Shown piece by piece: positions 47,494 to 50,927 of a DNA stretch of 64,000 nucleotides. A program made the translations under genes and the position numbers. Where the stretch lies: the NCBI RefSeq assembly GCF_947623445.1, contig NC_135243.1, positions 16,680,501-16,744,500 of the forward strand, given 5' to 3'. The notes beneath the pieces were generated by a model that was not told the DNA's origin, did not search any database, and saw only the letters and a program-made list of their open reading frames with translations. Source of the DNA: Clavelina lepadiformis (lineage: Eukaryota; Chordata; Ascidiacea; Aplousobranchia; Clavelinidae). Within the stretch, counting starts at the first letter, position 1. Each line of letters begins with the position of its first letter.

Positions 47494-50400
47494 ATGCTTA
47501 TGATAAGAATAAGCCTAACTTTGTGTATGCTTCAAAATTTAGTTGCATCCGGTAAGAATCTTGTATATTATCAAGAGCTTAACTTGTTATAGGCCTACAT
47601 CAATCCTATTTGATAACTTTGGTTTTGTAATAGAAATAACGCCAGTGAAAATGAAGCCTGCGTCCAGTTTAGGAGGTGAGCTGTATACAATTTTGGAGAA
47701 CCTGATAGAAAGCCCAGGTAAAGTTTTTATGTTTTTATAACGTTAGAGGTTGGTTTACATGTCGACAAGCGTTGAAGAAACCTTCAGGTCAAATGGTTTG
47801 CGAAACCATAGTCATGACACCAATCGCCAATCTTTTAGGTAGGCCTACTCCAGGCAAACGTATTTGATTCAAGTAATTTAGTTAGGCTACTTAGGGTAGT
47901 TGCTAATCTGTTGCAATGCATTCCTTATTAATATGTCGCTTTGTAGGCAACCTAATGCATTTAACTATAACTTATGAATTAACAAAATATCAGATTCGGC
48001 GAAAATTCGTTTGTGGAATTTGCATCCTGATGTTGACAACAAATTCCTTGTACCATACGTCATTTCCACCGGTTTAGGTAAAAATCTATAGTATAAATTT
48101 CACGGTCTGCACATATCCTGCACTCTGTATACTGTGACAAATTTCCACGTCATATCTTGAAATATTACAATGAGGTATGGTCAGTTAACCAGTTAAGACA
48201 AGGTGACATAAAACGTACGGTATGTCTTGTATTGTGTGTATATGGTATCGCGAAGTGTAACTTTATGCATTGCTGCAAAACCCATAGTCGAAAAGCTCGC
48301 GCATTACGCTTAACACCATATTTGTGCAGACCGTTTAAGCGATTCAAATGTTTTCAACAAAACAACAATATTGATGTTAGGTAAAATAATCTTACGTGAT
48401 GCAATTACTCGTGTTTTTGTTTATATTTTGCAGCTACATATGTTAAGGCAACGCAATACCTTAAGGACACTTTGCGAGAATATTCCAGCAAAAGTTGTAT
48501 CAGATTTATTAATCGAGTGCCGCAAGTTCATGAGGACTACATTGAATTTATGGCGGGAAGAAGATGTCTGTCCAGACTCGGAAGGAAAGGTGGAAGGCAA
48601 ATGGTAAATTACCTTCAATCTACAACACTTGTGATTGTCAATGCAAGTAGTTACATATTTAGAAACTTGGGTTACCTACTGTAGCTGTCCTCGAAGCACT
48701 CTTGCTTTTAAATACGTGTGCAACATTCTGTTTAGAGAAATACATAACACATGTAATATTTTATGTAATTTCTGCTTGAAAAAATTCAGCAATTTTAACA
48801 AAGGAAGCGATCACCTGTTGTGATATAAGATAAATTAAATGTGCTTACAGGTGTTTATCGGCGGAAGATGCAGATCTTCAACAGCTGCAATTCAAAAAAT
48901 TTTGCTTCGTACTTTAGGAGTAAATAAAATTAATAGCATCAAAGGTAAAACTATAACACCTGCAACAGTTTGCAATCCACAATTCATGAAAACATGAAAA
49001 CAGTTTTCATAAATATATTTGTTGCATTGCTTTTAAAAGCAAATTTAGATCATCAACATTATGCGTTATACTTATTCAACTTGTAGAACCAATCAATTCT
49101 TTATCACATACCGCCAATAAAAACGACGACGACCAATCACTCCTCGTAACATTGAAAGAAAAGTAAGGAGTGGCCTATACATTTTATTTCTAGTTTGAAA
49201 CAGCAACACTAAAAAAATTAATGTTTTCGTACTATGAAAAAAATGCTTCTGCATAATGGATCAAGACTTAAATGTATCGTGTCACGGTATACCTAATGCG
49301 ATTTTAATGCATAGGTTGCTTGAAGATAAAGGAGGTCTTCCTGCCGTTTACATAGAAGTCATAAAAAAATTATATGGCTGCCATACAAGTAAATATGACA
49401 TCATTAAATTTATTATAAAGTTTTGCCGGCTACTCTTTATATTTTCGGTGTTGTTTTATTGTTATACTGTATAATTCATTGACTGCCACTTTTGTACTGC
49501 AGTCACCACGACCGTATCTCCAACAACTACAACGCTAAAACATCCTTGCGGTAGACCAAAAATATCACCGCACTTATTCTTTCATCACAAGATAGTGGGA
49601 GGTTATTTTAGTTTCGTCGAAGTTTAGCATTTTTAAGTTCTTATAAATATTTGTTGGTGACTAACTGTTTGTATTACATAAAAAGTCATAAAGCGCTTAC
49701 TTTTAAAATGAAAAGTAAGCCAAGAGTAAAAGGCCAACATTCTAAATGCCTTTATAGGAGTTCAAGCTCGCCCTGGAAGTTTTCCCTGGCAAGCGGCTGT
49801 TTTGTGGCGACAACTCGATCTGCCACTGTGCGGAGGATCGTTGTTAAATAAACGGTGGATCCTAACTGCAGCCCACTGTTTTGTTTAGTGAGTGACAACT
49901 TTTATGCATGTTTAAGACTGCCGGTTATCGTTCGATAGGTACGGGTGTCCTGCTTCACTTTGTTTTATGCTTTGATTTCGTATTAGCTCACTTAGCCCGG
50001 ATTTGTATTCTGGATACCTCGGGAAACACCACAAGAACGAAAAAGATCAGCAAGAACTTAAAGTGTTTTTTACGTCTTTAATCTCGCACCAGAATTACAC
50101 TTTCAGTACCAAGCAACATGACATAGGACTTTTGAAAGTAAGTTCATTTTGTGGTTCAGTTCAGTTGAAAAAATCCACTCAAAATGATTTTAAAATCAAA
50201 TTAGAAACTTACTATTGGCAGATTGATAGAGAGATCTCGTTCACCGATTATATATTGCCGATTTGTCTTCCGAAGGATACAGGAAGTTTGCCAGTAACAG
50301 GAACAAAGTTGGTAGTTACTGGTTGGGGAGATACTTTGGGTATGATCTGTTTATTTACTAAAATCTAATTATAGAACGCGTATCATAGAGTTTGCATTTA

Positions 50401-50927
50401 TTTGCAGATACTGGCGACAGCAGTGTTTTAAGGCAGGTAACAGTTCCTTTATTGGGAATGCAAGTATGCAAGAATGCTTACTCGTTGGTGAAAACAGGAA
50501 TGATATGTGCTGGAGAACAAAAAGGCGGTAAAGATGCTTGTAAGGTAAGTTCGCAGATAAAATATGTTACCGTAAAATGCTTTGTTTCCTTTTTCGTATA
50601 TGTTTGGGCAGGGTGACAGCGGAGGACCACTGACGTACAAAAATGCAGTGGGTCGCTTCACCTTAATTGGGATCGTATCTTGGGGTGAAAGCTGTGGCGA
50701 GGCTAAAAAACCGGGTGTTTACACAAACGTAAATGTTTTGTTTATTTTGTCAATATATTTCCATTTATTAATTATTATTTAAGATTTAGTTAATTAATTT
50801 TTTGAATAATAATCTAATAAGTTGTTTTTCTTCAAAATAACTTTCAAAACATTTATGTTAATTTCAGGTTGCACATTACCTGAAGTGGATATACGACAAC
50901 ATAGACCTTGACTCAAGCAAAAACTGA
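47494..50927 (+). CDS. Pseudo-astacin / trypsin-like serine protease fusion
   Basis: Fifteen exons give 500 aa: 47494-47551, 47634-47717, 47788-47838, 47994-48077, 48434-48603, 48851-48944, 49087-49162, 49315-49388, 49503-49601, 49758-49887, 49987-50137, 50222-50339, 50408-50544, 50612-50728 and 50868-50927. Residues 1-19 are a signal peptide. Exons 2-8 follow the astacin genes upstream exon by exon ([11 protein letters not shown] helix, [35 protein letters not shown]). The antistasin exon is missing and the zinc site is erased: Q164, K165, L168 and N174 replace the three His and the Glu. A Thr-rich linker leads to IVGG at 261, then LTAAHC (H303), HDIGLLK (D352), CKGDSGGP (S445) and trypsin-type D439. 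The serine protease therefore looks active and secreted, with an enzymatically dead astacin scaffold as its propiece. All phases close. The alternative, two genes, would need unseen stop and start signals. Confidence 0.82.

What the first reader, a model, noticed from the sequence alone, without database searches (positions are those of the whole stretch)
47494..50927. A dead astacin fused to a live trypsin
The first half follows the neighbouring astacins exon by exon, but all three zinc His and the catalytic Glu are replaced (Q, K, L, N at the HExxH-x5-H positions). The second half is an S1 protease with His, Asp, Ser, IVGG and the trypsin-specificity Asp all in place. An inactive metalloprotease used as the pro-scaffold of a serine protease is an architecture I do not know from any described family.
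Basis: partly seen in the sequence, partly recalled or inferred. Interest (0 to 1): 0.8.

Follow-up and report, generated by a model that had tools for sequence, protein, structure and literature searches.

The report
Dead metalloprotease heading a live trypsin
A sea squirt gene joins a worn-out, zinc-less metalloprotease domain to an apparently working trypsin-type protease; live versions of the same two-protease fusion sit elsewhere in the genome, so this looks like a decayed offshoot of a known kind rather than a new architecture.

Summary
Window 47494-50927 reads as one 14-exon gene (483 aa, every junction GT-AG, phases consistent). Its first half is an astacin relic (Pfam Astacin 46.6 bits, cut-off 22.5, profile positions 7-92 only), its second half a complete trypsin (221 bits). 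The zinc-site His residues and catalytic Glu are gone, as are the Met-turn stretch and the FXGD prodomain exon, yet all four astacin disulfide cysteines remain. His57, Asp102, Ser195 and Asp189 of the trypsin are present. The first Met after the linker starts is residue 397, so the trypsin exons have no usable start of their own. The host is Clavelina lepadiformis, chromosome 4. "Unknown architecture" is only partly right: chromosome 1 of this genome carries live astacin-ShKT-trypsin fusions with the same intron phases, and astacin-trypsin proteins are in print for cnidarians and helminths. Most likely this is a decayed fusion of that kind: a two-chain trypsin-like zymogen with a pseudo-astacin heavy chain as non-catalytic module. 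No transcript, orthologue or structure could be tested.

The parts
47494..47551 (+). exon 1, likely signal peptide ([19 protein letters not shown]), phase 1
   Evidence: signal peptide judged by eye
47634..47717 (+). exon 2, matches AST1 exon 2 (84 vs 81 nt), phase 1
47994..48077 (+). exon 3, start of pseudo-astacin ([12 protein letters not shown]), AST1 exon 5 counterpart, 51 nt shorter, phase 1
48434..48603 (+). exon 4, best-kept astacin part (..[20 protein letters not shown]), holds Cys42- and Cys64-equivalents, phase 0
48851..48944 (+). exon 5, degenerate zinc site ([14 protein letters not shown] at 48887-48928), Cys84-equivalent, 42 nt shorter than AST1 exon 7, phase 1
49087..49162 (+). 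exon 6, degenerate C-terminal subdomain, Met-turn stretch lost, 57 nt shorter than AST1 exon 8, phase 2
49315..49388 (+). exon 7, astacin end (..IKKLYGC, Cys198-equivalent), phase 1
49503..49601 (+). exon 8, Thr-rich linker, pro-region Cys229, activation site K243|I244 (IVGG), phase 1; no Met codon in frame
49758..49887 (+). exon 9, S1 with His57 (49874-49876), phase 2
49987..50137 (+). exon 10, S1 with Asp102 (50120-50122), phase 0
50222..50339 (+). exon 11, S1 with Cys122 (50264-50266), phase 1
50408..50544 (+). exon 12, S1 with Asp189 (50533-50535), phase 0
50612..50728 (+). exon 13, S1 GDSGGP with Ser195 (50618-50620), phase 0
50868..50927 (+). exon 14, S1 C-terminus and stop
34574..36634 (+). 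AST1, intact neighbouring astacin (9 exons, HEMLHAMGFWHE, FQGDI), for comparison
37481..39328 (+). AST2, neighbouring astacin with HEMMHAMGFFHE, for comparison; my script failed on its exon 2, so the printed model is incomplete there

Best explanation
One secreted gene product: signal peptide, pseudo-astacin, Thr-rich linker, then a trypsin-specificity S1 protease. It is most likely a decayed member of the astacin-(ShKT)-S1 fusion genes of this genome. The ShKT block and the FXGD prodomain exons were lost, the zinc site and most of the C-terminal astacin subdomain eroded, and the four astacin disulfide cysteines and the whole protease were kept. Inferred mechanism: it is made as a zymogen, cut at K243|I244 by a trypsin-like enzyme (possibly itself, since Asp189 is present), and the pseudo-astacin heavy chain stays attached through a Cys229-Cys355 pair as in chymotrypsinogen-type two-chain proteases (recalled). 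The heavy chain then serves as a binding or targeting module, or an exosite, not as a catalyst. Shown: gene structure, domain content, lost and kept residues. Inferred: decay from a fusion ancestor, secretion, two-chain form, module function.
For: Single frame through 14 exons with 13 of 13 GT-AG introns. Both Pfam domains over cut-off in one protein. Exon 8 has no in-frame Met, the first Met after residue 213 is residue 397, and the intron between the halves is 114 nt. Phases of FUS (0,1,2,1 | 1,2,0,1,0,0) equal those of live C1a on chromosome 1 outside its phase-1-bounded ShKT block; C1b and C1c agree in the parts spliced. C1a scores Astacin 188.5, ShK 95.2 (4 stretches) and Trypsin 201.9 bits. 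In the S1 tree FUS falls with the C1 S1 domains and two S1 domains of chromosome 9 (support 0.82); 6 of 13 scorable rows (FUS, C1a, C1b, C1c, C1e, L043) lack both Cys136 and Cys201 and 7 of 13 have both. Four astacin cysteines (C42-C198, C64-C84 in crayfish astacin, PMC9848320, passages) are kept at residues 97, 211, 120, 139. Frame kept despite deep divergence.
Against: No transcript, proteomic or orthologue evidence. Inside the S1 group the nearest branch is the chromosome 9 pair, one of which is a TSP1-kringle-S1 gene (0.73), not a fusion S1, so the S1 half could have joined a tandem astacin copy independently. In the astacin tree FUS groups with a chromosome 8 astacin that has also lost its Glu (0.85) on a very long branch, so its place is uncertain. 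The phase pattern of each half also occurs in genes without the other half (AST1; L043), so it does not prove common fusion. Codon-usage score of the first half is weak (0.06 bits/codon against 0.26 for AST1, which was in the training set) and exon by exon the true frame scores best in only 4 of exons 1-8. Intron 7 holds one ATTAAA hexamer at 49403. Without the C-terminal subdomain the half-domain may not fold.
Confidence: 0.62

Rival explanations
1. Independent fusion: a tandem astacin copy next to AST1/AST2 was joined by exon shuffling to an S1 cassette of the same S1 subgroup, with no ShKT ancestor; the astacin then decayed.
For: AST1 and AST2 lie 8-13 kb upstream on the same strand, and AST1 is the best other genome hit of the first half (42%, E 8.7e-7). 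The S1 subgroup also occurs with TSP1 and kringles and with ShKT alone, so its phase-1-bounded cassette shuffles. FUS S1 is nearest the chromosome 9 type (0.73).
Against: The Thr-rich linker and astacin-to-S1 order match the chromosome 1 fusions. FUS shares a one-residue insertion before the zinc site with C1a-d and L034 but not with AST1/AST2 (alignment).
Confidence: 0.25
2. Two overlapping things, not one protein: exons 1-7 are a decaying astacin pseudogene and exons 8-14 belong to another S1 gene whose first exons were missed.
For: The zinc site is gone and Pfam covers only positions 7-92; codon score is low. An unseen first exon of an S1 gene inside one of the earlier introns is not excluded; a hexamer ATTAAA lies in intron 7.
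Against: No stop in 213 codons; 6 of 6 exon-length changes are multiples of 3; 0 of 400 neutral runs stay open at 50% identity or less. No Met in exon 8, and intron 7, only 114 nt, leaves little room for a 3' end plus a promoter and signal exon. Four structural cysteines kept.
Confidence: 0.08
3. The first half is only an inert N-terminal extension that persists because its signal peptide is needed for secretion; no selected function beyond that. (This can be true together with either origin.)
For: Zinc site, Met-turn, EXXRXDRD and FXGD all lost; 21-31% identity to the 13 other astacins over 93-144 aligned residues.
Against: All four disulfide cysteines and the [12 protein letters not shown] stretch kept; frame kept through 7 exons.
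Confidence: 0.25

Closest known systems
Astacin-ShKT-S1 fusion genes of the same genome (C1:7.224-7.245 Mb, loci L030-L032)
   Same: Astacin, then Thr-rich linker, then Cys-containing pro-region, R|IVGG where read (C1a, C1c) and trypsin-specificity S1; same intron phases in the parts spliced
   Different: Their astacin has HExxHxxGxxH and a Met-turn, and ShKT domains lie between; here the astacin is dead and truncated and ShKT is absent
Trypsin-Astacin proteins of Cnidaria (Babonis et al. 2019, PMC6767649, passages)
   Same: Both domains in one protein
   Different: The passages seen say nothing of dead astacins; domain order and sequences not compared here
Helminth astacins with trypsin-like serine peptidase domains (review PMC9848320, section 2.7)
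   Same: Astacin with an S1-type enzyme domain downstream
   Different: That section does not call them inactive; sequences not compared here
Plasma kallikrein / factor XI type two-chain S1 proteases
   Same: Best PDB matches of the S1 half; non-catalytic heavy chain before a tethered protease (architecture recalled)
   Different: Their heavy chains are apple domains (recalled), not a pseudo-metalloprotease

Membership tests
M12A astacin (PF01400) | Pfam profile match over cut-off | tested here: met
   46.6 bits, cut-off 22.5, but positions 7-92 of 189 only
M12A astacin (PF01400) | HEXXHXXGXXH zinc and catalytic site | tested here: not met
   [11 protein letters not shown]; no His or Glu in either register
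M12A astacin (PF01400) | EXXRXDRD motif and SIMHY Met-turn | tested here: not met
   no counterpart; exons 5 and 6 shorter by 14 and 19 codons
M12A astacin (PF01400) | FXGD(I) aspartate switch in the prodomain | tested here: not met
   exon with LFQGDIML in AST1 has no counterpart
M12A astacin (PF01400) | C42-C198 and C64-C84 cysteines | tested here: met
   residues 97, 211, 120, 139; pairing itself not testable
S1A trypsin (PF00089) | profile, His57-Asp102-Ser195, IVGG, Asp189 | tested here: met
   221 bits full length; residues located
S1A trypsin (PF00089) | proteolytic activity | not testable with these tools
   needs protein
Astacin-ShKT-S1 fusion of this genome | astacin, linker, S1 order with phases 0,1,2,1 ... 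1,2,0,1,0,0 | tested here: met
Astacin-ShKT-S1 fusion of this genome | ShKT repeats between the halves | tested here: not met
   no ShK in the product; none seen by eye in exons 7-8 or the 114-nt intron
Astacin-ShKT-S1 fusion of this genome | S1 domains form one clade | tested here: inconclusive
   grouped at 0.82, but nearest at 0.73 are the chromosome 9 S1 domains

The most novel reading that the evidence does not exclude
The pseudo-astacin has become a dedicated regulatory heavy chain: it keeps the astacin disulfide frame to bind the substrates, prosegments or inhibitors of the live tandem astacins AST1/AST2, so that a trypsin-like zymogen is steered to the same targets or activates the neighbouring pro-astacins. 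That would be a metalloprotease fold reused as the targeting part of a serine protease.
Probability: 0.1. Interest if true: 0.7.

Novelty: new variant of a known kind. Interest (0 to 1): 0.45.

Why it matters
If right, it shows a route from a two-enzyme fusion to a one-enzyme protein with a pseudoenzyme heavy chain, with live relatives still in the same genome for comparison. It also shows astacin-trypsin fusions in a tunicate; the passages seen name them for cnidarians and helminths, and I did not establish whether tunicate cases are already known. A dead protease covalently joined to a working protease of another catalytic class is a clean case for asking what pseudoprotease domains are kept for.

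Tried and rejected
Search for a second copy of the pseudo-astacin in the genome: 17 matches from 18 candidates at E up to 10, 7 of them this gene's own exons, the other 10 astacin exons at 31-43% identity, one of them the Glu-less gene on chromosome 8; no close paralogue, so no dN/dS was computed. Pseudogene reading rejected on frame and indel evidence. Separate S1 gene judged unlikely for lack of a start codon and room. A hidden astacin upstream of the chromosome 1 minus-strand ShKT-S1 gene (C1e) was sought with a home-made profile and not found; the profile found the live astacin exons of the cluster, but I did not test whether it would find one as degenerate as FUS. Structure prediction was not run: the tool takes proteins that the DNA gives letter for letter, which I read as excluding spliced proteins. 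Scans of the prokaryote, viral and metagenome collections were not run, since I expected no animal genomes there. The astacin tree's grouping with L035 is not relied on because of the long branch. Outgroup S1 splices are rough: L037 failed at a junction and was left out of the tree; L044 failed and entered as a 43-residue fragment; C1e, L038, L039, L045, L046 and L048 lack some or all of the stretch between His57 and Asp102. L037, L040, L047 and L049 were seen by tblastn only; their segments show both Cys136 and Cys201. Of the astacin loci L001-L008 only L003 and L004 went into the 14-row astacin tree.

Full report
Observation. The window segment 47494-50927 was read directly and spliced by hand. 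Fourteen exons give an unbroken 483-aa frame; all 13 introns are GT-AG. hmmscan finds Trypsin (221 bits, residues 244-472) and Astacin (46.6 bits, cut-off 22.5, residues 67-156, profile 7-92 of 189) in that one product. The first half's best PDB sequence match is High choriolytic enzyme 1 (E 3.8e-8); the second half's is plasma kallikrein (E 1.5e-53).

What is dead and what is kept. At the zinc site the sequence is [14 protein letters not shown] (48887-48928). Either way none is kept. The review PMC9848320 (passages) lists as astacin hallmarks the EXXRXDRD motif, the SIMHY Met-turn, the prodomain FXGD(I) aspartate switch and, in crayfish astacin, the disulfides C42-C198 and C64-C84. The first three are absent here; the four cysteines are all present (residues 97, 211, 120, 139). 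In the S1 half His57, Asp102, Ser195, IVGG and Asp189 are present (numbering recalled).

One gene or two. Compared with AST1, six exon lengths differ by +6, +3, -51, +6, -42 and -57 nt, all multiples of three, and two phase-1 AST1 exons (3 and 4) have no counterpart. Randomly substituting AST1's astacin domain down to 70, 50, 40 and 28.5% aa identity left an open frame in 5, 0, 0 and 0 of 400 runs each; the simulation treats all divergence as neutral and has no indels. The two shifted frames of the spliced first half hold 18 and 14 stops. The first half's codon-usage score (0.06 bits/codon) is above the best of 2000 noncoding windows (-0.03), which were drawn from the same sequence that set the background; it is well below AST1's 0.26 (AST1 was in the training set), and exon by exon the true frame is best in only 4 of exons 1-8. 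Codon-position differences to AST1 are 84, 63 and 99 over 144 codons at positions 1, 2, 3. Exon 8 has no Met in frame, the first Met after residue 213 is residue 397, and the intron before exon 8 is 114 nt with one ATTAAA hexamer, so the S1 exons as found cannot start a secreted protein alone; a missed first exon in an earlier intron is not excluded.

Host. The held genome has 209,060,895 bases in 95 contigs, with C1 28.78, C2 26.53, C3 25.73, C4 25.07, C5 24.62, C6 20.77, C7 20.45, C8 19.51 and C9 15.73 Mb. The Clavelina lepadiformis genome note lists nine chromosomes of 28.79, 26.54, 25.74, 25.07, 24.62, 20.77, 20.45, 19.51 and 15.73 Mb (PMC10884593, passages). Its total (210.1 Mb, 102 scaffolds) is slightly larger than what is held. 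The window is C4:16,680,501-16,744,500.

Relatives in the same genome. The pseudo-astacin has no close paralogue (17 matches, 7 of them its own exons). PF01400 gave 85 matches (96 of 96 candidates scored), PF00089 165 matches (150 of 388 scored, list cut), ShK 49 matches (118 of 118 scored). By my reading of the lists, astacin and S1 matches lie together only here and at C1:7.209-7.249 Mb; since the S1 lists are incomplete, more such places may exist. There, C1a (C1:7,224,609-7,228,569, spliced from the astacin exon onward) reads as live astacin, Thr-rich linkers, ShKT repeats and S1 with its active-site residues (Pfam 188.5, 95.2 over 4 stretches, 201.9 bits). C1b and C1c have the same order of astacin, ShK and S1 matches and were spliced in part. 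C1d has astacin, a Thr-rich linker and a ShKT exon, with no S1 found in the fetched stretch. Phases outside the ShKT block equal those of the window gene wherever spliced.

Descent. In a 14-row S1 tree (L044 is a 43-residue fragment and six rows lack part of the middle) the window S1 groups with the chromosome 1 S1 domains and two chromosome 9 S1 domains (0.82), nearest the latter (0.73). Of 13 scorable rows, 6 (FUS, C1a, C1b, C1c, C1e, L043) lack both Cys136 and Cys201 and 7 have both. L043 belongs to a TSP1-kringle-S1 gene (read by eye) and C1e to a ShKT-S1 gene without a detectable astacin, so this S1 cassette has been shuffled. A 14-row astacin tree puts the window gene with L035 of chromosome 8, whose catalytic Glu is also lost (0.85), on a long branch. 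Common descent from an astacin-ShKT-S1 gene is my first choice; an independent join to a tandem astacin copy remains open.

Literature. Babonis et al. [quoted passage not shown] The astacin review (PMC9848320, section 2.7) reports helminth astacins with trypsin-like serine peptidases among more than 100 added domains, and ShKT-astacins in sea squirts. PMC11266112 on inactive metallopeptidases uses the word astacin once in its main text, for the metzincin members (passages). PMC1867822, PMC11673157 and PMC11788884 (passages) gave no astacin-trypsin protein in the passages seen. Searches of the open-licence library (listings of 4 to 15 titles each) showed no title or abstract start about a dead astacin joined to a trypsin; one search found no paper with the terms pseudo-astacin, inactive astacin or astacin-trypsin. 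Subscription papers are not covered, and the papers listed were mostly not opened.

Verdict. The gene model, the loss of the metalloprotease site and the complete trypsin residues are shown by the sequence. It is a new variant of a known fusion kind; its function as a tethered non-catalytic module is the best guess and is untested.

Noticed in passing
L035:2749-4400 (C8:5.386 Mb): A second pseudo-astacin: HLLMHALGFLHQH keeps the three His but the catalytic Glu is Leu; a ShKT-like stretch follows, seen by eye.
   Followed up: partly
L043:1307-1429 (C9:4.6126 Mb): TSP1-kringle-S1 gene whose GDSGGP reads GDGGGP (catalytic Ser to Gly), while its neighbour about 10 kb away (L044) keeps GDSGGP.
   Followed up: partly
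C1:7,215,268-7,217,429 minus strand (L030): Short ShKT-S1 gene with its own likely signal peptide and no astacin found, beside the fusion genes.
   Followed up: partly
window 35018-35386: AST1 carries an antistasin-like stretch (16.8 bits, below the 21.2 cut-off) inside the astacin prodomain, in the exon that holds the FQGDI switch.
   Followed up: no
window 43093-43349 and 44146-44402: 257-nt direct repeat, 99% identical, 1053 nt apart.
   Followed up: no
window 49389-49474: If intron 7 were retained, the pseudo-astacin would end in a hydrophobic tail ([24 protein letters not shown]) before a stop.
   Followed up: no
window 41477-42352: Fucosyltransferase (Glyco_transf_10, 184.5 bits) between the astacins and the fusion gene.
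   Followed up: no
window 63557-64000: TNP-like RNase H transposase fragment running off the window end (38.5 bits).
   Followed up: no
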